From assembly GCA_025612245.1 (NCBI GenBank), contig JAAXKQ010000017.1:1-64000 (forward strand): 64,000 nucleotides of DNA, in the 5' to 3' direction. Shown in pieces: positions 50,992 through 63,271 of this stretch. Below the pieces are notes generated by a model, which had not been told where the DNA came from, did not search any database, and saw only the letters and a program-made list of their open reading frames with translations. The position numbers were made by a program, and so were the translations under genes. Numbering within the stretch: position 1 is the first letter of the stretch; every line of letters starts with the position of its first letter. This DNA is from Ignavibacteria bacterium (lineage in GTDB: Bacteria > Bacteroidota > Ignavibacteria > Ignavibacteriales > SURF-24).

Positions 50992-51891
50992 TCAGCTCAA
51001 AGTTACTTTGCTTAACCCCATGCAGCGGAGCGTTTTAAGCCAGCCATCCTTTACTTCTTCGGAGGCAGTTTTAACGCCTTCCAGTGCCGCAGGCCTGCCG
51101 ATCTTCCGGGCCTTGTCGTTTCCCATGTTGTGGTAGGGCATTATTTCAATGCCTGAGAGTTCCGGATACTTTTCTGCAAGCAAGGCTATTGCCTGCAGGT
51201 GTGCAATTGAATCGTTAATGCCGGGAATTAAGGGCAGGCGGAGGATGATTCGGGCATTATTCCGGTACAGAAAGTCCAGGTTCGACAGGATTGCCTTGCC
51301 TGAAACCCCGGTAAGCCTTCTGTGCGGTTCCTCACCCGTAGCTTTATAGTCAAAAAGAAAAAGGTCAGTTAAAGGGAGGAGATTACTGAAACTATTCCTG
51401 GGTGCAAGCCCGCAGGTTTCAACAGCCGTATTTATATTGAGCTCTTTTAGGCGTTTTAAGAGTTCCATCGTAAATGGAAGCTGTGCCAGCGGCTCACCTC
51501 CCGAGATGGTGACGCCGCCCCCGGAATTCCTGTAATAGTCCAGGTCCCTTATTACTTCTTGCACCACCTCTTCAACGCTTCTATGGTATCCGATTACTTT
51601 TATGCCATCCCGCGAATTTTTCCTTATGCTCTCCAGGCATGAGCTGCAGAAAGGGAAGCTTTTAAGGTTAATTTCACCTTCAGCTTCCCTTAGAAATTTA
51701 TTAACCATGCTGCGGCAGCTTTCACAAAGCTCGCCCCCGGAGGAGACTTCAGGAAAGAAATTTTTGCTCTCGGGGTTATGGCACCACAGGCAGTCAAGAG
51801 GGCAGCCTTTTAGGAAAACCGTCGTTCTTATCCCCGGGCCGTCGTGAAGGCTGAAGCGCTGTATGTCAAAAATAAGTCCCTGCGTACTCAT
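50992..51891 (-). CDS. Glycyl radical enzyme activase (radical SAM)
   Basis: 299 residues. 'DGPGIRTTVFLKGCPLDCLWCHNPES' (in parts) has the CxxxCxxC cluster of activases; two further Cys groups follow ('CESC' and 'CSSC'), the extra ferredoxin-like clusters typical of the TIGR02494 group. 'GGGVTISGGEPLAQ' binds S-adenosylmethionine. It generates the glycyl radical in its partner enzyme using 5'-deoxyadenosyl radical chemistry. It lies 29 nt downstream of the glycyl radical enzyme gene, so the pair is one operon. Confidence 0.92.
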   Translation of the reverse strand: MSTQGLIFDIQRFSLHDGPGIRTTVFLKGCPLDCLWCHNPESKNFFPEVSSGGELCESCRSMVNKFLREAEGEINLKSFPFCSSCLESIRKNSRDGIKVIGYHRSVEEVVQEVIRDLDYYRNSGGGVTISGGEPLAQLPFTMELLKRLKELNINTAVETCGLAPRNSFSNLLPLTDLFLFDYKATGEEPHRRLTGVSGKAILSNLDFLYRNNARIILRLPLIPGINDSIAHLQAIALLAEKYPELSGIEIMPYHNMGNDKARKIGRPAALEGVKTASEEVKDGWLKTLRCMGLSKVTLS

Positions 51892-51920: not shown

Positions 51921-54161
51921 CTAATAAAGCGTGCGGCTCAAAATTTCCAGCTGCACATCCCGTGAAAGCTCCACGAAGCGGGCGCTGAAGCCGCCGACTC
52001 TTACAAAAATATGGCTGTACTTTTCAGGTTCTTTCATCGCATTTTCCAGGTCGTTCCTGTTTACAACCGTAATCATCGCCTGGGCCCCTCCTTTCTGGAA
52101 ATAGGTTTCGAGGAGGCTTTCTACAACAGGGCGCTTTTTTGTGAACATATCCCTGCTGAACTTCATGTTCTGCACGGCGCCGGCATGGATGTAAGTGGAA
52201 GGTTTTACAATTGAATTGAGCATTGCCGTCAGCCCCTTGCGGTCGAAGCCGCTTGAAGGAGCGTTGCCGTTATTCATAGGGCTTCCTGAGGTGCGTCCGT
52301 CAGCCGAGGCTGAGGTCTGGTGCCCGAGGAGCGTGTTGGCGCTGTTGTTAATGATTACGATAAGGTAAGAATGCAGGTTTGTCCTGGATTTCTGTGACTT
52401 TACGTACCCGGCGACGTGGTCATGGACTCTTAAGAGCATGCCGTCGGCACATTCATCGTCATTTCCATACTTCGGGCATTTCAGCATCAGTTCACGTTCG
52501 GCCTCAAAGCCTTCGAAATTCCGGTCGAGTGCATGGAGGAGTTCTTCCTGTGTTAAAGCTTTTTCATCATAGACAAGCTTTTTAATTGCGGTAAGGCTGT
52601 CTGCCGTATTGGAGTTGCCGTAGGTCTCAAGCGTTCCGCCAAGAAAGTCAATTCCCCCCGAGAAAGCGCCTTTGCCTTTTTCAAGGCAGCCATCGTAGAG
52701 CATGCTAAGAAAGAGGAATGGGGCAGTTTCGCCGGCAAGCTTGTATTCCAGCTCTTCCTGAGAGGCCAATAGGTCTACAAAATGCTCCACCTGCCTGGTG
52801 TAGGCTTCCCACAGCTTTTCAAATGTGTCAAAACTTTTGAATTCACCCAAGTCAAGTCCTATACTGCGGCCCGTAGCCGGATCTATTCCGTTATGCAGTG
52901 TAACTTCGAGCGCCTTAAGTAAATTTATCACGCCGCTTGGTGTACCAAAGCTTTTATGGTCAATTATATATTCACCGCACCCGAAAGGTACGTACTGCTC
53001 GCTTAGGGTACGGTTAAGGCAGAAAGCAGACTGTACAGAGGGGATGTTGACGTCATCGTTATAAAGCATCGGGTATGTGCGCCCTTCCCCAATTACAAAA
53101 AGAGCCTTATCCATAAGTAAAGGATTCATTCCTTTATAAAATCTCAATGAAAGCTGCGGCTCGGCTTCTTTTACATTCAGCGTTGCTTCCATAGCCATGA
53201 GAGCAAAGCGGTCGGCATTTTTTTCATTTACGCGCCCTTTTCCCCCGATTATTACGCGGTTATGAACAACGGTATTTCTTGCTGCCATTAGTCTCCAGAG
53301 TGAGTCCAGGAGCCTCTGGGCTTCATTTTCGGAAATAATGTCCGAGTTCAGGTCATTAACCAGAAAGTCGCCCAGGTAGACGTCCATCCTTCCGTAATTT
53401 CTTATGTCTGAAGCCAGTGAATAAAGCCAGAATAGCTGGATTGCCTCACGGAAAGTCTTTGGCTTTGAGACTGTCACTTTTTCGAGCGCAGAGGCCATCT
53501 GGAGGAGTTCATTTTTACTTTCAGTGTCACTTTCAACCTCAGCCTTAAGCCTGGCCTCACGCGCGTAATGGCGGCAAAGGTCTGAAAGGACTTCCAGTGC
53601 AATAAGCATGGCGTCATAAAATTCAGTTTCCTTAGCATCACGTTGAGCAAATAACCTGAAACGCCTGATTTCTTCGGACAGCCCCGGGATTCCAAGAGTC
53701 AAGAGTTTCCCGAAATTTATGTTTCCACCAGTAAGCCTGTAAAGGGGGAAAGCGATGCCGTAGTCGTGCATCCAGTCATCCGCAGGAAGCCACCTGGCCA
53801 TTTCCCCGCTATATCTTTTGCGGAGTTGAGCCGAAGTGTTCTCGGTTCTCCAGAAAAGGAGCATTTCTTCAATTTTTTGCCTGCGGGTGCTGTCAAGTTC
53901 GCTTTTTGACATTAGTTCACGTATTTCACTTTCCTGGCAGTAATATCCGAATGCCGTGGGTCCCCATTCATCAGGCGTAACTCCCACAAATGTATGCTGA
54001 ATCCTTCCGGCAAAGAGGTCTCCTCTCTGGATTTCGGTAAAAAAAGCCGGATACTGGACCTTAAGGCACATTGCCTCACGGATTGCCGGATGAGCATTTT
54101 CATACTGCTTATAAGTTTCTGTGAATTTCAGCTCTGTTTGTAATATATTGTTCTTCATCAT
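51921..54161 (-). CDS. Glycyl radical enzyme of the pyruvate formate-lyase superfamily, substrate unknown
   Basis: 746 residues, close to dehydratases and lyases of this superfamily. The Gly radical site is 'RVGGFSARFVEL' (Gly724, second G) near the C-terminus. The thiyl site is 'YVPFGCGEYIIDH': Cys395 and Glu397 are kept, but GCVE of glycerol dehydratase, choline lyase and the like reads GCGE, followed by Tyr. Pyruvate formate-lyase itself has two Cys and is ruled out. A substrate cannot be named. The ribosome site GGGAGATAC supports the first of two ATGs. Oxygen-sensitive chemistry implies anoxic growth. It is divergent from an AraC-type regulator; sugar-metabolism genes lie beyond. Confidence 0.88.
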   Translation of the reverse strand: MMKNNILQTELKFTETYKQYENAHPAIREAMCLKVQYPAFFTEIQRGDLFAGRIQHTFVGVTPDEWGPTAFGYYCQESEIRELMSKSELDSTRRQKIEEMLLFWRTENTSAQLRKRYSGEMARWLPADDWMHDYGIAFPLYRLTGGNINFGKLLTLGIPGLSEEIRRFRLFAQRDAKETEFYDAMLIALEVLSDLCRHYAREARLKAEVESDTESKNELLQMASALEKVTVSKPKTFREAIQLFWLYSLASDIRNYGRMDVYLGDFLVNDLNSDIISENEAQRLLDSLWRLMAARNTVVHNRVIIGGKGRVNEKNADRFALMAMEATLNVKEAEPQLSLRFYKGMNPLLMDKALFVIGEGRTYPMLYNDDVNIPSVQSAFCLNRTLSEQYVPFGCGEYIIDHKSFGTPSGVINLLKALEVTLHNGIDPATGRSIGLDLGEFKSFDTFEKLWEAYTRQVEHFVDLLASQEELEYKLAGETAPFLFLSMLYDGCLEKGKGAFSGGIDFLGGTLETYGNSNTADSLTAIKKLVYDEKALTQEELLHALDRNFEGFEAERELMLKCPKYGNDDECADGMLLRVHDHVAGYVKSQKSRTNLHSYLIVIINNSANTLLGHQTSASADGRTSGSPMNNGNAPSSGFDRKGLTAMLNSIVKPSTYIHAGAVQNMKFSRDMFTKKRPVVESLLETYFQKGGAQAMITVVNRNDLENAMKEPEKYSHIFVRVGGFSARFVELSRDVQLEILSRTLY

Positions 54162-54264: not shown

Positions 54265-55158
54265 ATGGATTACGAAATTTCCGCAAGGGGAGAAATGCAA
54301 AGCGTTTTAATTATGAGGAAGGATGAGCTGATTGATCCCGTTACCGAGATCCATTATGCATTCCACAGAAGCCTGAAGAATATTACAGTCCCTCACAGGC
54401 ACGATTTCTACGAGTTTTTTATTATTATAAGGGGAAGTGTAATTCACAAGATTAACGGCAAGAGTGAACTTTTAAGCGAGGGCACACTGGTCTTTATACG
54501 TCCTGATGACGTGCACTACTACGAGAAAAGCACAAGCGAGGTCTGTGAGCTGGTAAACCTGGCTTTCCCGCCGAAGGCCGTAAGTGAGCTCTTTAGCTAC
54601 CTTGGAGAGGGCTTTATGGCAGGCAGGCTTCTTAAGGCCGAAAATCCGCCTCATGTTTTGCTAACCGCGGGTGAAAAGGACTTTGTTGTTGAGAAGCTGG
54701 AAGAGTTAAACACTCTGCCAAGGAAGAACAAAGAAGAAATCAAAACGCGACAGAGGATACTTCTGCTTGAAATATTTACGAGGTATTTTCAGTTAGAAAA
54801 AATTGAAAAGAAAAGTGCCGTTCCCACCTGGCTTAAGGAGCTATGCCGGCTTTTGCAGGAAAAGGAAAACTTCAACCGGGGAATTCCCTGGCTTCAGGAG
54901 CGTTCGCAAAGGAGTCCCGAGCACTTATGCCGGGCTTTCCGGAAATTTCTTAATACGACGCCTACGGAATTTATAAATGAACTCAGGCTTAACTATGCGG
55001 CTAACGTTCTTTCCAGCACCGACCTTGAAATAATTGAGGTCTCAGCGCGCGCAGGCTTTGAGAACCTGAGCCACTTTTACCACCTTTTTAAGGAAAAATA
55101 CGGCCTTTCGCCCGGAGAGTTCAGAAAGCAGCACAAGACGAGCATGATCCCCTCGTGA
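54265..55158 (+). CDS. AraC family transcriptional regulator
   Basis: 297 residues. N-terminal cupin for ligand binding ('VPHRHDFYEFFIIIRGSVIHKINGK', in parts; 'GTLVFIRPDDVHYY'), then a double helix-turn-helix about 195-290 with the family signature 'VSARAGFENLSHFYHLFKEKYGLSPGEFRK' (in parts). The start may instead be the ATG at 54295, which follows AAGGGGAG; the frame is the same. It lies 103 nt from the divergent glycyl radical enzyme gene and probably controls it or the genes at 55.2-57.2 kb. Confidence 0.9.
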   Translation: MDYEISARGEMQSVLIMRKDELIDPVTEIHYAFHRSLKNITVPHRHDFYEFFIIIRGSVIHKINGKSELLSEGTLVFIRPDDVHYYEKSTSEVCELVNLAFPPKAVSELFSYLGEGFMAGRLLKAENPPHVLLTAGEKDFVVEKLEELNTLPRKNKEEIKTRQRILLLEIFTRYFQLEKIEKKSAVPTWLKELCRLLQEKENFNRGIPWLQERSQRSPEHLCRAFRKFLNTTPTEFINELRLNYAANVLSSTDLEIIEVSARAGFENLSHFYHLFKEKYGLSPGEFRKQHKTSMIPS

Positions 55159-55225: not shown

Positions 55226-56224
55226 ATGAGGTCTTTGTTTCTTCTAATACTGCTTTTCTACGCAGCAATTAAGCCTCCTTTTACGCAAGGGCAGCAAAGG
55301 GATCGGATTTTCTTAGGAGGTCAAAAGCCTGAAAAGGTCTTCAGCGGGGGCTTTTTTACCGAAGGACCCGCCGAAGGGCCCGATGGGGATATTTATTTCA
55401 GCGATCTTACGTTTACCTCGGAATCCGGTATGCAGGCCGGATACATCTGGAAGTTTAATCCCAAAACCGGTAAGACGGTTCTTTACCGCTCACCGAGCGG
55501 AATGGCAAACGGCATTGCGTTTGACTTAAAGGGTAACATGCTTGTTGCACAAAGTGCCGACTTTGGTTTAAGGTGCCTGACCAAAACAGACATGAAAACG
55601 GGAAAAAGCAGCATTTTAGCCGGCCTCTTTGAGGGAAAACCCTTTAACTCTCCAAACGACCTCACGATGGACAAAAAGGGAAGATTATACTTTACAGATC
55701 CCCGTTATACCGGTCACGAGAAACTGGAACAGTCCGTAATGGGGGTATACCGCCTGGATATGGATGGGAAAGTAAGCCTGATAATCAGTGATATTCCGAT
55801 GCCAAACGGCATTGCCATATCCCCCGATGAGAAGACGCTTTACGTCGGCTGCTACGATGAAGGCAGCGAAACCGAAGGCCTTTCAAGGCCAGCCAGAATG
55901 GAAATACTTTCTTACAGCCTTAACGGGGATGGAAGCGCTATTTTCAGAAAAGTTCTTCTCAAGTTTCCGCCCGACGCCGGGGGACCGGACGGCATGAGGC
56001 TCGATGAAAAGGGGAATATTTACGTTGCAATTAGAAATGAAGCCTCCCCTTCGCTTAAGGTCTTTTCTCCTGAAGGGCAGGAAATTGCCTCTTTGAGCCT
56101 GCCGGAGGTGCCAAGTAGTCTTGCCTTCAGCAGAAAATCCGGGGAAAACTATCTTTACATTACGGCAGGCAAGAGCCTCTACAGGATCAAAACGCTTAAT
56201 AAAGGATATTTCATTTCAAAATAA
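55226..56224 (+). CDS. Secreted SMP-30/gluconolactonase-like protein
   Basis: 332 residues. Signal peptide MRSLFLLILLFYAAIKPPFTQGQ, then a six-bladed propeller of the SMP-30/LRE type: 'EGPAEGPDGDIYFSDL' (metal-binding Glu), 'NSPNDLTMDKKGRLYFTDP' (Asn/Asp metal ligands), 'PNGIAISPDEKTLYVGCYD' and 'GGPDGMRLDEKGNIYVA'. Such proteins hydrolyse sugar lactones with a divalent metal. Exported, so it works in the periplasm or outside. It sits next to an oxidoreductase of the Gfo/Idh/MocA family that could make lactones from sugars. Confidence 0.88.
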   Translation: MRSLFLLILLFYAAIKPPFTQGQQRDRIFLGGQKPEKVFSGGFFTEGPAEGPDGDIYFSDLTFTSESGMQAGYIWKFNPKTGKTVLYRSPSGMANGIAFDLKGNMLVAQSADFGLRCLTKTDMKTGKSSILAGLFEGKPFNSPNDLTMDKKGRLYFTDPRYTGHEKLEQSVMGVYRLDMDGKVSLIISDIPMPNGIAISPDEKTLYVGCYDEGSETEGLSRPARMEILSYSLNGDGSAIFRKVLLKFPPDAGGPDGMRLDEKGNIYVAIRNEASPSLKVFSPEGQEIASLSLPEVPSSLAFSRKSGENYLYITAGKSLYRIKTLNKGYFISK

Positions 56225-56252: not shown

Positions 56253-57248
56253 ATGAAAAAAGTAAAACTTGGCATAATCGGGTGCGGAATTGCAGCCAGG
56301 GAACTCCACCTGCCTGCCTTAAGAAAGCTGCAGGATAAGTTTGAAATTACGATGCTCTGCAACCACACTGAGCAGAAGGCCCGCGACCTTTCGGAGCAGC
56401 TGGGCAGAGTTCCATACGTCCTTGACTACCGCGAGCTCCTGGAAAGCAGTGAAGTCGAAGCCGTAGACATTGCGCTTCCCATTCACTTGAACTTCAAGGT
56501 GGCAAAAGACTCTCTCTTAAAGGGAAAGCATGTCTTTGTGGAAAAACCTGTTACGGCAAACCTTAGGGAGGCTAGAAAGATTCTCTCCCAGTCGGAAGCC
56601 TCAGACTTGGTAATGCTGGTAGCCGAGAACTTCCGCTACAGGAAGGTATACTTACGGGCTAAAGAGCTCATGAAAAAAGGGAAGATAGGAAAGCCTTATG
56701 CCGCCATGTGGGATCTGTTTAACCAGGTGACACTGAACAGTAAATACGCAAAAACCAAGTGGCGCCAGCATCCAAAGTATCCGGGCGCATTTGTAAGCGA
56801 CGGAGGGGTTCATAACGTTGCAGCCCTAAGGATGCTCTTTGGGGAATTTACTTCTGTAAAAGCATTTACAAAAAGCATAAATCCCAAAATCGGCAGCCCC
56901 GATACGATGAGCCTTCAGTTCAGGTCGCAAAGCGGTGTGGATGGCGTCTTTAATATATTTTACTCTGTTGACGGGTACTGGGAAAACAGGCTCCTGATTT
57001 TTGGCAGCAGGGGAAGCATTATAATTCAGGAAAATAAGCTCATGCTCAAAAATAACAGTGAAGATGATTACATAGAAGAAGTTGAAGATGATAACGGCTA
57101 CATAGCTGAATTTACAGATTTTTATAACGGAATAAGAAAGAAGAAAAAAGTTCTCAGCACTCCCCATGAAGGATTAAAGGATCTTGAAGTAATAATTGCC
57201 GCACTTAAGTCGGCTGAAAGTAACAGGAGCGTAAGCCTCACGCACTAA
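56253..57248 (+). CDS. Gfo/Idh/MocA family oxidoreductase
   Basis: 331 residues. Rossmann fold 'KLGIIGCGIAARELHLPALRK', catalytic 'GKHVFVEKPVTANLREA' (EKP Lys), and C-terminal beta domain with the 'DGGVHNVAALRMLFG' His motif. NAD(P)-dependent oxidation or reduction of a sugar or inositol; substrate unknown. It has no signal peptide, unlike its upstream neighbour. It is 28 nt after the SMP-30 gene, so the two likely form a sugar oxidation pair. Confidence 0.88.
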   Translation: MKKVKLGIIGCGIAARELHLPALRKLQDKFEITMLCNHTEQKARDLSEQLGRVPYVLDYRELLESSEVEAVDIALPIHLNFKVAKDSLLKGKHVFVEKPVTANLREARKILSQSEASDLVMLVAENFRYRKVYLRAKELMKKGKIGKPYAAMWDLFNQVTLNSKYAKTKWRQHPKYPGAFVSDGGVHNVAALRMLFGEFTSVKAFTKSINPKIGSPDTMSLQFRSQSGVDGVFNIFYSVDGYWENRLLIFGSRGSIIIQENKLMLKNNSEDDYIEEVEDDNGYIAEFTDFYNGIRKKKKVLSTPHEGLKDLEVIIAALKSAESNRSVSLTH

Positions 57249-58611: not shown

Positions 58612-59880
58612 GTGAAAAATGCAGTTACTATTTCCCTGATCTTATTTGCCTTTTCATTATTATCCTGCAGCCGGAATGACAGTAAAAAGGTAACAATTAC
58701 ATTCTGGGCTCTGGGGGCAGAAGGGGAGACCGTAGAAAAACTGGTTCCGGGCTTTGAGAAAGAAAATCCCGGCATACACGTTGTCGTCCAGATGATACCC
58801 TGGACTACAGCGCAGGAAAAGCTCATTACCGCCTATGCAAGCAACAATACCCCCGATGCCTGCCAGCTTGGCAACACCTGGGTCCCGCAGTTTCAGGCTT
58901 TAGACGCGCTTGAAAACCTGGACAGCTGGGTGAAGGCTTCACAAGTCATCAAACAAAATGAATATTTCAGCGGAATCTGGGATACAAACGTTCTTGACGG
59001 AAGCATTTACGGAATCCCCTGGTACATTGATACAAGGCTTCTTTTTTACAGGACTGACATATTAGCCCAGGCGGGCTACAGCACACCTCCAAGGACCTGG
59101 GCGGAGCTTTATGAGGTTTCGAAAAAGATAAAACAAAAGGCCGGAAATTCGGAAAGGTATGCCATATATCTTCCTACTAACGAATGGGCTCCTTTTATTA
59201 CTTTCGGAATTCAGAACGGAAGCAGCATCTTAAAAGATAACGGGCGCTATGGCGACTTCAGCGGCGCAAAATTCATGAAGGCGTTCGACTACCTCGTGAA
59301 ATTCCACAAAGAAGGGCTCGCACCTACGGGCATCTCGCAGGTCACAAACGTATATCAGGCTTTTGCCGAGGGCTACTTTGCGATGTATATTTCGGGCCCC
59401 TGGAACGTAAAAGAATTCTCAAGGTGGATGACGGGAAGCCTGAAGGACAAGTGGATGACTGCAACACTTCCTGCCCCTGAGGCTGGAAAAGCCGGCTTGT
59501 CACTTGCAGGGGGATCGAGCCTCGTCATTTTTAAGCGCAGCAGCCATAAAGCCGAGGTATGGAAATTCTTTGAATACCTTTCAAGGCCACGGGTACAGAT
59601 GCAGTTCTACAGGGAGATAAATGACCTTCCGGCCATTAAGGCTGCCTGGCAGGACACCGCACTGTCCAGGAATAAGTACATGAAAGCCTTTTTTGAGCAG
59701 TTTCATCATGTGGTTGCAACACCAAAGGTGCCTGAGTGGGAGCAGATTGCATTCTCGAAGGTCCAGCTTTATGCAGAACTTGCCGCAAGGAATGTAATGC
59801 CCGTAAAAAGCGCCCTCAGTGCGCTGGACAAGGATGTAGACAATATTCTGGAGAAAAGAAGATGGCTTTTGAGGAAATAA
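58612..59880 (+). CDS. Sugar ABC transporter substrate-binding lipoprotein
   Basis: 422 residues, GTG start behind GGGAAGAG. Lipobox 'LLSC' (Cys19). Family 1 extracellular solute-binding protein: 'ITFWALGAEGETVEKLVPGFEKENPGI' (in parts), 'ASNNTPDACQLGNTWV', 'YFAMYISGPWNVKEF', 'AGGSSLVIFKRSSHKAEVWKF' (in parts). It captures an oligosaccharide and delivers it to the MalF- and MalG-like permeases that follow. No ATPase gene is adjacent, so the importer probably shares a multi-use ATPase encoded elsewhere. The lipidated anchor places it on the inner membrane. Confidence 0.9.
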   Translation: MKNAVTISLILFAFSLLSCSRNDSKKVTITFWALGAEGETVEKLVPGFEKENPGIHVVVQMIPWTTAQEKLITAYASNNTPDACQLGNTWVPQFQALDALENLDSWVKASQVIKQNEYFSGIWDTNVLDGSIYGIPWYIDTRLLFYRTDILAQAGYSTPPRTWAELYEVSKKIKQKAGNSERYAIYLPTNEWAPFITFGIQNGSSILKDNGRYGDFSGAKFMKAFDYLVKFHKEGLAPTGISQVTNVYQAFAEGYFAMYISGPWNVKEFSRWMTGSLKDKWMTATLPAPEAGKAGLSLAGGSSLVIFKRSSHKAEVWKFFEYLSRPRVQMQFYREINDLPAIKAAWQDTALSRNKYMKAFFEQFHHVVATPKVPEWEQIAFSKVQLYAELAARNVMPVKSALSALDKDVDNILEKRRWLLRK

Positions 59881-60848
59881 CCAGTAAGAAGTACACGGCA
59901 GGACTGAACAATAAATTAATGGAAAACAGAACCCCGGAAGCTAAGAATACAAGGAAAGCACCCGGTCGTACATTTTCATTTAAGCTCCCGGCGGCTTATT
60001 TTTTTCTGGCACCTGCGCTTCTGACAATATTTGTTTTCTTTTTTATACCCGTTGCCGCTGCCTTTATAATAAGCTTTACGGATTTCGACATCTATGCCCT
60101 TAGCAGCTTTTCAAACCTCAGGTTTATAGCGCTTAAGAATTACGTAAGAATCTTTGGTGAGCCACTGTTCTGGAAGGCCTTGGAGAATACGTTTTATTTT
60201 GTCATTGGAGCAGGCCCCATTTCAATTGCGGTTTCATTAGGGGCTGCAATGCTCCTTAATTCCAAGCTTGTCAGGCTCAAAGGGCTTTTCAGGCTTTTTT
60301 ATTTTATTCCCGTCGTTACGACGCTTGTTGCGGTTGCCGTTGTCTGGCGCTTTATTTACCACCCGCGCTTCGGCATACTTAACTACCTGCTCGCATTTCT
60401 GGGAGTAAACCCCATCGACTGGCTTGGAGACCCCAACTGGGCTATGCCTGCAATTATACTCATGGCGGTATGGAAAAATTTCGGCTACAATATGATCATT
60501 TTTATTGCCGGCCTTCAGAGTATTCCGGAATACCTCTATGAAGCCGCAATGCTTGAGGGGGCGGGCTGGTGGCCGAAATTCAAAAGCATAACGCTTCCAA
60601 TGCTCGCTCCTACTACCGTATTTGTGGGCATAATAACAATGATCGGCTATTTCCAGCTTTTCGCCGAGCCTTACGTCATGACGCAGGGAGGCCCATTGAA
60701 CAGGACACTCAGCATCGTACAGTATATGTACGAAGAAGGCTTCAGGTGGTGGAACATGGGGTATTCGGCAGCTCTGGCATTCGTGCTGTTTTTGATCATT
60801 TTTGCCGCAACCCTCATTCAGCTAAAGCTTCAGAAGGAAACAGAATAA
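59862..60848 (+). CDS. Sugar ABC transporter permease (MalF-like)
   Basis: 328 residues from the ATG at 59862 with GGAGAAAAGAAG before it; it overlaps the binding-protein stop by 19 nt, so the two are coupled. A longer frame starts at 59736 but lacks support. Six membrane helices; the EAA loop 'YEAAMLEGAGWWPKFKSITLPML' (in parts) that contacts the ATPase is intact. 'FLAPALLTIFVFFFIPVAAAF' (in parts) is helix 1. Membrane half of the importer. Confidence 0.92.
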   Translation: MAFEEITSKKYTAGLNNKLMENRTPEAKNTRKAPGRTFSFKLPAAYFFLAPALLTIFVFFFIPVAAAFIISFTDFDIYALSSFSNLRFIALKNYVRIFGEPLFWKALENTFYFVIGAGPISIAVSLGAAMLLNSKLVRLKGLFRLFYFIPVVTTLVAVAVVWRFIYHPRFGILNYLLAFLGVNPIDWLGDPNWAMPAIILMAVWKNFGYNMIIFIAGLQSIPEYLYEAAMLEGAGWWPKFKSITLPMLAPTTVFVGIITMIGYFQLFAEPYVMTQGGPLNRTLSIVQYMYEEGFRWWNMGYSAALAFVLFLIIFAATLIQLKLQKETE

Positions 60849-60849
60849 A

Positions 60850-61665
60850 ATGACGACAAAAAAAATCCTTTTGCATTCATTTCTCTTGATAACCGGTCTT
60901 CTTACGCTTCTTCCGTTCATATGGATGATTTCGGCTTCCTTCATGGCAGACGGCCATGCAAGTGTTTATCCGCCGAGGTTTATTCCGGATTCTTTTACCA
61001 CAATGCAGTATGAGAGCCTTTTTTCGAGGCTCAACGTGGCACGGAACCTTTTTAACAGCCTTTTTGTAAGCATACTCGTTACCGGTGTTTCGTTATTCAT
61101 CAACTCAATGGCAGGTTACGCGTTCGCAAAATACAGGTTCAGGGGGCGGAATAAAATTTTCAACCTTCTTTTGAGCTCAATGATCATTCCCTCACAGGTA
61201 ACTATGCTCCCGTTGTTTCTGATGCTTAAGTATATGGGACTAATAAATACTTACCTTGCCATACTGATCCCGGGGATGGCAAACATCTTCGGCATATTTT
61301 TAATCAGGCAGTACGCACTCTCAATTCCAGACAGCATTATTGAGTCCGCCCGCATCGACGGGGCAGGCGACTTCCAGATCTATTCCAGGATAATTCTTCC
61401 CCTGTTAAAGCCGATCCTTGTGACGCTGACGATTTTTACGTTCATGGGTACGTGGAATGACTTCCTCTGGCCACTTATTTCACTTACCGACAGCAACATG
61501 TATACTCTCCCGGTTGCGCTTTCTAGCCTGATGAGGGAGCACGCAAAAGATCCTGAGCTGATGATGGCTGGTTCCGTCATTACAATTGTTCCCGTCCTGA
61601 TAGTCTTTCTGGTGCTGCAGAAGCATTACATAAAAGGAATTATGCTGGGAAGCGTTAAGGGGTAG
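60850..61665 (+). CDS. Sugar ABC transporter permease (MalG-like)
   Basis: 271 residues, starting one base after the upstream stop. Six helices and the EAA loop 'IESARIDGAGDFQIYSRIILPLLKP' (in parts), with the MalG end 'LVLQKHYIKGIMLGSVKG'. Second half of the channel. The next gene, a secreted glucanase, starts 235 nt later and has its own promoter. Confidence 0.92.
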   Translation: MTTKKILLHSFLLITGLLTLLPFIWMISASFMADGHASVYPPRFIPDSFTTMQYESLFSRLNVARNLFNSLFVSILVTGVSLFINSMAGYAFAKYRFRGRNKIFNLLLSSMIIPSQVTMLPLFLMLKYMGLINTYLAILIPGMANIFGIFLIRQYALSIPDSIIESARIDGAGDFQIYSRIILPLLKPILVTLTIFTFMGTWNDFLWPLISLTDSNMYTLPVALSSLMREHAKDPELMMAGSVITIVPVLIVFLVLQKHYIKGIMLGSVKG

Positions 61666-61810: not shown

Positions 61811-61900
61811 TTTTCTTTTTAAGTTAAAATGCACGCGTGTCTTGTTGAAATTTGTGTGTCTGTAGTTAATTTTTCAGCTCAAAAAAACAGGCATCCGGGA

Positions 61901-63271
61901 ATGAAAGACTTTCGAGTATTCTCTTTAACTATTTTTCTACTGTTGACCTTGCCCAAATGCCTTGCGGCGCAGGAATATCCTTACCGGGGAAGCATTCACT
62001 ATAATTTTACTCCTGAAGAAAACCAGTTCCTCGATACGCTTGAAAGGAGAACATTTGATTATTTCTGGCAGGAGTGCAACCCTTCAAACGGCCTGGTAAA
62101 GGACCGCTCTGTTGAAACTTCACCCGCAAGCATCGCTGCCACGGGCTTTGGAATTGTTGTCTGGGCAATTGGTGCCGGGAATAACTGGATCTCAAGGCAG
62201 GAGGCAGAAGAAAGAACGCTCAGCTTACTCAGGTTTCTTTTTGCTTCAGAGCAGTCGGAAAGTCCCGATGCAACAGGCTACAAAGGCTTTTATTACCACT
62301 TTCTTAACATGCAAACGGGTAAAAGAGAGTGGAACTGTGAGCTTTCAACAATTGATACGGCGTGGCTTCTGGCTGGCGTGAGGTTTGCAAGGCAATTCTA
62401 CTCCGGGAAGAATAAAGCGGAAGAGGAAATAAGAACGCTTTCAGATAAGATTACTTCACGGGTGGACTGGGACTGGAGCGTACTTAAGCAGGGGAAGTAT
62501 TCAGGGTTTATCGCTCAGGGATGGAGGCCCGAAAAGGGTTTCCTGGATTTGGGATGGTTCGGCTACAATGAATCGCTCTTCCTTTTTATTGTGGCCTCGG
62601 GAAGCACGCTAAGCAACCCAATCCCGGTCTACAATAACTGGCTCAGCACTTATGCATGGATAAATCCTTACCCGGAGCTTTCGCACTTTCTATTCCCGCC
62701 TCTTTTCGGGCACCAGTATAGCCATATGTTTATTGATTTCAGGAACGTCGCGGACATGAAGCTGAAAGAAAAAGGAATAGATTATTTTGAAAATTCCAGG
62801 CGGGCTGTCCTCTGCCAGAGAAAGTATGCTTCTGAAAACCCTTTCAAAAGGAAAGGCTACGACTCTCTTTGCTGGGGAATGACGGCCTCCGACGGGCCTT
62901 CCCATAACGGTTATATCGGATATGCGGCACGCGGAACAAGCGGCAAGGGCTTTGAGCATGACGATGACGGAACCATTGCTCCCACGGCTGCCGCAGCCTC
63001 AATTCCATTTGCTCCGGAAATATGCATGAAAACAATAAAAAATATGTATGAAAAGTACGGACAGCTTGGACTCTGGGGAAGGTACGGCTTTGTGGATGCC
63101 TTTAACCCGGATGCCAACTGGGTTGACAGTGATTACCTTGGCATAGACCAGGGTCCCATCATAATAATGATTGAAAACCTCAGAACTGGCCTGGTCTGGA
63201 AAGAAATGATGAAAGATGAGGTAGTTCTTGCAGGCTTGAAAAGGCTGCAGTTCCAAGCGTACTACCAATAA
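61901..63271 (+). CDS. Secreted COG5368/GH144-like glucanase
   Basis: 456 residues from the ATG at 61901 (signal MKDFRVFSLTIFLLLTLPKCLAAQ); a frame start at 61829 adds residues before the signal. PF10091/'glucoamylase family' motifs: 'LERRTFDYFWQECNP', 'SPASIAATGFG', 'GFYYHFLNMQTGKREWN', 'LSTIDTAWLLAG', 'PLFGHQYSHMFIDFR', 'CWGMTASDGPSHNG', 'DGTIAPTAAAASIPFAPE', 'YGFVDAFNP' and 'GIDQGPIIIMIENLRTGLVWK' (in parts). Family members shown to be active, GH144, cut beta-1,2-glucan to sophorose-type oligosaccharides; that activity is inferred here, not proven, and alpha-glucan activity is unlikely despite the old name. Exported. It follows an importer for the expected oligosaccharides. Confidence 0.88.
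   Translation: MKDFRVFSLTIFLLLTLPKCLAAQEYPYRGSIHYNFTPEENQFLDTLERRTFDYFWQECNPSNGLVKDRSVETSPASIAATGFGIVVWAIGAGNNWISRQEAEERTLSLLRFLFASEQSESPDATGYKGFYYHFLNMQTGKREWNCELSTIDTAWLLAGVRFARQFYSGKNKAEEEIRTLSDKITSRVDWDWSVLKQGKYSGFIAQGWRPEKGFLDLGWFGYNESLFLFIVASGSTLSNPIPVYNNWLSTYAWINPYPELSHFLFPPLFGHQYSHMFIDFRNVADMKLKEKGIDYFENSRRAVLCQRKYASENPFKRKGYDSLCWGMTASDGPSHNGYIGYAARGTSGKGFEHDDDGTIAPTAAAASIPFAPEICMKTIKNMYEKYGQLGLWGRYGFVDAFNPDANWVDSDYLGIDQGPIIIMIENLRTGLVWKEMMKDEVVLAGLKRLQFQAYYQ

What the first reader, a model, noticed from the sequence alone, without database searches (positions are those of the whole stretch)
51921..54161. Glycyl radical enzyme with an unusual GCGEY thiyl loop
The C-terminal Gly radical motif (RVGGFS) and an adjacent activase make this a real glycyl radical enzyme. 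The catalytic loop keeps Cys395 and Glu397 but reads GCGEY where glycerol dehydratase, choline lyase, hydroxyphenylacetate decarboxylase and isethionate lyase share GCVE, and pyruvate formate-lyase has two Cys. A Gly beside the thiyl Cys would widen the pocket. It is divergent from an AraC regulator and near an SMP-30 lactonase and a Gfo/Idh/MocA oxidoreductase, so a sugar-like or polyol substrate is plausible. I know of no characterised member with this loop.
Basis: partly seen in the sequence, partly recalled or inferred. Interest (0 to 1): 0.65.

Follow-up and report, generated by a model that had tools for sequence, protein, structure and literature searches.

The report
Uncharacterised sugar-linked glycyl radical enzyme clade
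This gene encodes an oxygen-sensitive radical enzyme from a large, deeply separate and apparently uncharacterised branch of a known enzyme superfamily, found in several bacterial phyla beside genes that break down sugars, so it probably performs a new radical reaction on a sugar or sugar-like alcohol.

Summary
The gene is a complete 746-aa glycyl radical enzyme (GRE) on the MINUS strand (51921-54161), with Cys395/Glu397 in GCGEY, glycyl motif RVGGFS and a radical-SAM activase 29 bp downstream. The loop is not a one-off: it marks a clade (48 sampled members; Bacteroidota, Lachnospiraceae, Clostridium, Planctomycetota, Kiritimatiellae, others) split from every other GRE sampled by a long branch with full support in two tree methods. 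No solved GRE exceeds 28% identity and no NCBIfam equivalog cut-off is reached. New here: GCGE travels with a second glycine, RVGG in the glycyl loop (40 of 48); a subclade reads GCTE or GCGE[F/M] with RVSG/RVAG. The CXE eliminase signature is kept, but substrate residues of glycerol dehydratase and HypD are not. Neighbours are carbohydrate genes: SMP-30 lactonase, Gfo/Idh/MocA, sugar ABC transporter and AraC near the window; GH92 alpha-mannosidase and aldo/keto reductase in 61-66% orthologues; GH38, D-lyxose isomerase, ROK kinase, LacI in Lachnospiraceae; allulose-6-P epimerase/allose kinase or NanE elsewhere. Best reading: a radical C-O eliminase acting on a hexose-sized sugar or polyol. The exact substrate is not determined. 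New variant of a known kind.

The parts
51921..54161 (-). Glycyl radical enzyme, 746 aa, member of the GCGE clade
   Evidence: ORF and domains; trees; AlphaFold model pLDDT 93.4, pTM 0.92
52968..52982 (-). Cys loop GCGEY (residues 394-398): thiyl Cys395, Glu397 of the CXE motif
51984..52001 (-). Glycyl radical loop RVGGFS (residues 721-726); Gly724 is the expected radical site, Gly723 the clade-specific second glycine
50992..51891 (-). Radical-SAM GRE activase, 299 aa, 29 bp downstream of the GRE on the same strand
   Evidence: TIGR02494 285 bits against cut-off 174; conserved beside the GRE in 47 of 59 loci
54265..55158 (+). AraC-family regulator, divergent from the GRE; conserved partner
55226..56224 (+). 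SMP-30/gluconolactonase-like protein with an apparent signal peptide; conserved partner (N5, 7 of the 23 loci compared, window included)
   Evidence: Pfam SGL 7.5e-37
56253..57248 (+). Gfo/Idh/MocA oxidoreductase; conserved partner (N4); nearest solved chain 1zh8 (unassigned), 1,5-anhydrofructose reductase 2glx far weaker
58612..61665 (+). MalE-F-G-type sugar ABC importer (binding protein and two permeases); the binding protein is shared with orthologous loci (N3)

Best explanation
A glycyl radical eliminase (C-O lyase or dehydratase) of a clade not characterised in anything searched, acting on a hexose-sized sugar, anhydrosugar or polyol released during glycoside catabolism. Shown by sequence: intact Gly724 loop, Cys395, Glu397 and a dedicated activase. 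Inferred from the GRE mechanism: the activase makes a radical on Gly724; this makes a thiyl radical on Cys395; the thiyl takes a hydrogen from a carbinol carbon of the substrate; Glu397 deprotonates that hydroxyl to give a ketyl radical, which expels a neighbouring oxygen (water, or a ring ether oxygen as in YbiW/PflD) to give a deoxy-keto product. Neighbouring dehydrogenases or reductases (AKR or Gfo/Idh/MocA) or kinases (ROK) would then process the product. The substrate identity and the steps after the GRE are inferred only.
For: CXE motif, conserved among GRE eliminases (PMC7077986), is kept in the whole clade. Full-length GRE fold, closest by structure to eliminases (glycerol, propanediol and hydroxyproline dehydratases and others) and the A. 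fulgidus GRE 2f3o; Z 37-42. Carbohydrate neighbourhoods in separate lineages: GH92, SGL, Gfo, AKR and ABC binding protein in Bacteroidota; GH38, D-lyxose isomerase, ROK, LacI and GH2 in Lachnospiraceae; AlsE and AlsK-like genes in L012; NanE and ROK in the GCTE-containing subclade; GH130 with a GH2 mannosidase Ig domain in L060. At least 32 of 59 loci carry a glycosidase-family gene. Precedent: YbiW and PflD are sugar C-O-cleaving GREs (PMC12441222; PDB 8id7, 8id0). None of the roughly 130 neighbours scanned was reported as a microcompartment shell protein.
Against: No neighbour gene is constant across all subclades except the activase, so substrates may differ within the clade. The neighbourhood signal was not measured against a background, and glycosidase genes are common in these bacteria (the window's own genome has two GH92 genes elsewhere). 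The window itself lacks the AKR and GH92 orthologues nearby. Decarboxylases also carry a GCxE loop by general knowledge, so CXE alone does not prove elimination.
Confidence: 0.52

Rival explanations
1. It is a small-diol dehydratase: the glycosidases release glycerol or propanediol from glycosyl-glycerols, and the GRE dehydrates the diol to an aldehyde.
For: Glycerol dehydratase 1r8w is the best sequence hit (262.7 bits); many different glycosidases in the loci could share one aglycone.
Against: Glycerol dehydratase His164 and Ser282 fall in gaps and Asp447 aligns with Pro408 (which residues matter is from memory). Only about 26-28% identity. No 1,3-propanediol dehydrogenase or microcompartment gene as a conserved neighbour.
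Confidence: 0.1
2. It is a C-N lyase acting on an amino sugar or amino polyol.
For: NanE (ManNAc-6-P 2-epimerase) lies beside the GRE in five loci and nearby in a sixth, with ROK kinases in some; an M20-type hydrolase occurs in L073/L076. CutC is a precedent for C-N cleavage.
Against: NanE loci are confined to one subclade at 37-41% identity that includes the GCTE/RVSG variants; no amino-sugar gene was found near the window or its 61-83% orthologues.
Confidence: 0.1
3. It decarboxylates or dehydrates a sugar acid (aldonate or uronate) made by the Gfo/Idh/MocA dehydrogenase and the SMP-30 lactonase.
For: Dehydrogenase and lactonase genes are conserved partners in the window's order; the clade has family-specific Arg142, Arg302 and Arg310 that could bind an acid; one neighbour of the clade is a UxuA.
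Against: SMP-30 and Gfo are absent from most other subclades; positions of the Arg residues relative to the pocket were not tested; the window SMP-30 protein appears to be exported while the GRE is cytoplasmic.
Confidence: 0.12
4. It is a radical sugar epimerase or isomerase: the thiyl radical removes and returns a carbinol hydrogen without eliminating anything.
For: Several neighbours handle epimeric hexoses: AlsE and AlsK-like, NanE, D-lyxose isomerase, RpiB-like protein in L027 (by eye); two glycines next to the radical residues set it apart from known eliminases.
Against: No GRE epimerase is known to me; the eliminase Glu is retained throughout; the same neighbours also fit ordinary mannose or allose catabolism.
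Confidence: 0.07

Closest known systems
B12-independent glycerol dehydratase (Clostridium butyricum, 1r8w)
   Same: Fold over the whole length (Z 39.1, 712 residues aligned), CXE Cys loop, C-terminal glycyl loop, dedicated radical-SAM activase
   Different: 26-28% identity; His164, Ser282 and Asp447 not kept; GCGE/RVGG instead of GCVE/RVAG; sugar-catabolic neighbours
YbiW and PflD (1,5-anhydroglucitol-6-P / 1,5-anhydromannitol-6-P C-O lyases; 8id7, 8id0)
   Same: GRE eliminases acting on sugar-like substrates (PMC12441222); precedent for the proposed chemistry; Z 36.6 and 37.5
   Different: 23-27% identity, separate clades in both trees; GCIE/GCVE loops; E. coli pflD lies with PTS genes and ybiW with fsaA, none of which is near the window GRE
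[quoted passage not shown]
   Same: Fold (Z 38.9) and CXE motif
   Different: His160, Asp339, Phe340, Tyr450 and Thr645 not kept; 299.6 bits against an equivalog cut-off of 1100
Archaeoglobus fulgidus GRE 2f3o
   Same: Highest structural score (Z 41.8, 2.8 A, 705 residues, 28% identity)
   Different: Function unassigned in the PDB title; its Cys loop was not inspected here and it was not in the trees

Membership tests
Glycyl radical enzyme superfamily (PFL-like) | PFL-like barrel domain and C-terminal Gly-radical motif | tested here: met
   Pfam PF02901 and PF01228; RVGGFS; model superposes on GREs with Z up to 41.8
Glycyl radical enzyme superfamily (PFL-like) | Active-site Cys and a cognate radical-SAM activase | tested here: met
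   Cys395 invariant in 51 sequences; activase TIGR02494 above cut-off
GRE eliminases | CXE motif in the Cys loop | tested here: met
   Cys395-Gly396-Glu397, CXE kept in the clade; motif definition from PMC7077986
GRE eliminases | Catalyses a 1,2-elimination | not testable with these tools
   Needs an enzyme assay
B12-independent glycerol/propanediol dehydratase | Substrate-hydroxyl ligands His164, Ser282, Asp447 (1r8w numbering; residue roles from memory) | tested here: not met
   gap, gap and Pro408 in the alignment as mapped
HypD | Essential His160, Asp278, Asp339, Glu436, Phe340 | tested here: not met
   Gly146, Asp252 (uncertain), gap, Glu397, gap; 299.6 bits against cut-off 1100
PflD (NCBIfam NF007437) | Equivalog score cut-off 1109 bits | tested here: not met
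   204.4 bits; separate clade
YbiW | Groups with YbiW in the tree | tested here: not met
   Separate clades with 100% support on the GCGE stem
CutC choline TMA-lyase | Equivalog score cut-off 1050 bits | tested here: not met
   248.6 bits
4-hydroxyphenylacetate / indoleacetate decarboxylase | Equivalog score cut-offs 1150 / 1100 bits | tested here: not met
   194 and 229 bits
Pyruvate formate-lyase | Two adjacent Cys in the loop and equivalog score 994 bits | tested here: not met
   Single Cys; 102.8 bits
Sulfopropanediol dehydratase HpsG/HpfG | Equivalog score cut-off 1000 bits | tested here: not met
   272 and 251 bits

The most novel reading that the evidence does not exclude
The GCGE/RVGG clade carries out a radical transformation of unphosphorylated hexoses or glycosides not yet known for any GRE (radical epimerisation, or radical cleavage of a glycosidic or ring C-O bond), with the two glycines flanking the radical residues as its hallmark.
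Probability: 0.2. Interest if true: 0.82.

Novelty: new variant of a known kind. Interest (0 to 1): 0.55.

Why it matters
Most GRE clusters with a known function turned out to be specialised anaerobic pathways of ecological or health importance. This clade is deep, spans several phyla including human- and animal-associated Lachnospiraceae, and has no assigned function in what I could search. Its carbohydrate context gives a short, testable substrate list, and the coupled GCGE/RVGG signature gives a simple marker for annotating members now named 'formate C-acetyltransferase' or 'glycerol dehydratase'. If it acts on free sugars or anhydrosugars without prior PTS phosphorylation, it would extend radical sugar catabolism beyond the YbiW/PflD pathway.

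Tried and rejected
Rejected: annotation as pyruvate formate-lyase, glycerol dehydratase, HypD, CutC, HpsG, IAD/HPAD or PflD (far under every NCBIfam cut-off). Rejected: a lone point variant of a known dehydratase (clade-wide and deeply separate). Considered: the window Gfo/Idh/MocA as a 1,5-anhydrofructose reductase, which would give a non-PTS anhydrosugar route; 2glx scores only 57.9 bits against 248.6 for unassigned 1zh8, so not supported. Considered: aldehyde detoxification in a microcompartment; no shell protein was reported among the neighbours scanned. Considered: neighbouring GH92 as the defining partner; it is absent near the window GRE, though the genome has two elsewhere. The AKR partner has no close orthologue in the window genome (best 38%). 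Literature searches for GREs with anhydrosugars, mannosidases, Gfo/Idh/MocA, allulose or polysaccharide loci found no paper on this clade, but most subscription journals are not held, and the Levin 2017 network paper was not available. First reading of L012 U23/U0 as aldolase and kinase was wrong: they are a response regulator and a sensor kinase.

Full report
WHAT IS THERE. The gene lies on the minus strand at 51921-54161 and encodes 746 aa; the plus strand of the same interval has many stops. Pfam finds the PFL-like domain and the glycine-radical domain. The next gene downstream, 29 bp away on the same strand, is a radical-SAM GRE activase above the curated cut-off of TIGR02494. A divergent AraC regulator, an SMP-30/gluconolactonase-like protein, a Gfo/Idh/MocA oxidoreductase and a MalEFG-type ABC importer follow on the plus strand.

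IT IS A CLADE, NOT AN ODD VARIANT. A scan of 84,980 species genomes with the protein gave 42 loci, most at 34-70% identity, in records named as Bacteroidota, Cloacimonadota, Clostridia, Lachnospiraceae, Planctomycetota, Anaerolineaceae, Calditrichaeota, Lentisphaerae, Kiritimatiellae and Verrucomicrobiota. Searches of whole genomes added orthologues at 61-83% from the window's own order and more distant copies at 37-41% from Lachnospiraceae and Clostridium. It is patchy: 13 of 164 genomes of the window's order, 8 of 395 sampled across its phylum, 9 of 348 of one Lachnospiraceae-centred family sample. With reference GREs (E. coli YbiW and PflD, a HypD and a PflD equivalog confirmed, PFLs and several unassigned GREs), 48 members fall on one side of a branch with full support in FastTree (stem 0.73); a reduced set gives the same with IQ-TREE LG+C20 (stem 1.45, SH-aLRT 100). 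The root was not established, so 'clade' assumes the root lies among the other GREs.

THE SIGNATURE. GCGE occurs in 45 of 48 members; three members of one subclade read GCTE. Among the 24 reference rows of the comparison, position 396 is mostly Val, Ile or Met. The glycyl loop changes with it: 40 of 48 read R[VIL]GG, whereas the subclade holding GCTE and GCGE[F/M] reads RVSG or RVAG like other GREs. Further residues fixed in the clade but rare outside are Glu29, Cys32, Arg142, Tyr247, Arg302, Arg310, Gln336, Ser404, Pro408, Glu512, Asn606, Asn633 and Gln694. A GCGEF row in the reference list (L089) is itself a family copy; it does not change the picture. The AlphaFold model is confident (mean pLDDT 93.4, pTM 0.92) and superposes on GREs over the whole chain; every characterised GRE in the list is at 28% identity or less.

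ACTIVE SITE. The CXE motif, which is conserved among GRE eliminases and whose Glu normally deprotonates the substrate hydroxyl (PMC7077986), is kept. Outside it, the alignments put glycerol dehydratase His164 and Ser282 in gaps and Asp447 on Pro408, and HypD His160, Asp339, Phe340, Tyr450 and Thr645 on non-equivalent residues or gaps. Loop alignments at this identity are uncertain.

NEIGHBOURS. In the window's order, orthologues at 61-83% share AraC, the activase, SGL, Gfo/Idh/MocA and the ABC binding protein; those at 61-66% (and the 64% Cloacimonadota locus L003 for the reductase) add an aldo/keto reductase of the Kv-beta/AKR6D type, and several add GH92 alpha-mannosidase, a nucleoside-hydrolase-like protein, PhyH or a Zn-alcohol dehydrogenase. 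In Lachnospiraceae at about 50% the GRE sits with LacI, a ROK kinase, D-lyxose isomerase (3kmh-like), GH38 alpha-mannosidase, GH2, an amidohydrolase and a GH13-like pair. In L012 the upstream genes are most like D-allulose-6-phosphate 3-epimerase (3ct7, 241 bits) and D-allose kinase (3htv, 165 bits). In the 37-41% subclade NanE stands beside or near the GRE in six loci. L060 has GH130 and a GH2 mannosidase Ig domain; Lentisphaerae/Kiritimatiellae loci have a GH16-SGNH protein in the operon. At least 32 of 59 loci hold a glycosidase-family gene. Alpha-mannosidases (GH92 or GH38) occur in 15, in two unrelated families. I did not measure a background rate, and glycosidases are common in these bacteria, so this is a lead and not a statistic. 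The window itself has neither the AKR nor a GH92 nearby; its genome has two GH92 genes elsewhere and only distant AKRs.

MECHANISM. The best-supported reading is an eliminase on a hexose-sized sugar, anhydrosugar or polyol. Shown: radical machinery, CXE, separate clade, altered substrate residues. Inferred: hydrogen abstraction by the Cys395 thiyl, deprotonation by Glu397, expulsion of a neighbouring oxygen, and reduction or phosphorylation of the keto product by neighbours. YbiW and PflD set the precedent that GREs can cleave sugar C-O bonds (reported in PMC12441222; PDB titles), but those act after PTS phosphorylation and belong to other clades. Rivals (diol dehydratase, C-N lyase, sugar-acid enzyme, radical epimerase) are listed with their tests.

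NOVELTY. A new variant of a known kind: it is a GRE by every structural test, with no match to a characterised subfamily. I cannot exclude that the clade has a cluster number in published GRE similarity networks or a paper in a journal not held here.

Noticed in passing
window 51984-52001 with 52968-52982: The Gly in the Cys loop (GCGE) and the second Gly in the glycyl loop (RVGG) change together across the clade; a subclade with GCTE or GCGE[F/M] has RVSG/RVAG.
   Followed up: partly
L012:1082-2747: AlsE-like (3ct7, 241 bits) and AlsK-like (3htv) genes directly upstream of a GCGE-clade GRE in an Anaerolineaceae record, suggesting a rare-hexose link.
   Followed up: partly
L069, L070, L074, L075, L077, L078: NanE (ManNAc-6-P 2-epimerase) beside or near a divergent GRE subclade, with ROK kinase in L069, L070 and L074.
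   Followed up: partly
genome G544 (Lachnospiraceae sample): At least 17 GRE matches in one genome; two copies on contig C118 each contain one in-frame stop (TAA, TAG).
   Followed up: no
L005/G521 and L006/G522: Two genomes each hold two clade members, one of the GCGEY type and one GCTEF at about 41% identity, so the subclades may have different substrates.
   Followed up: partly
window 61829-63271 (+): PF10091 'putative glucoamylase' protein next to the sugar ABC importer; not shared with the 83% orthologous locus.
   Followed up: no
L055-L057, L065 and L009: PhyH-type oxygenase homologues sit near this oxygen-sensitive enzyme's gene in separate lineages, which is odd for an anaerobic pathway.
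   Followed up: no
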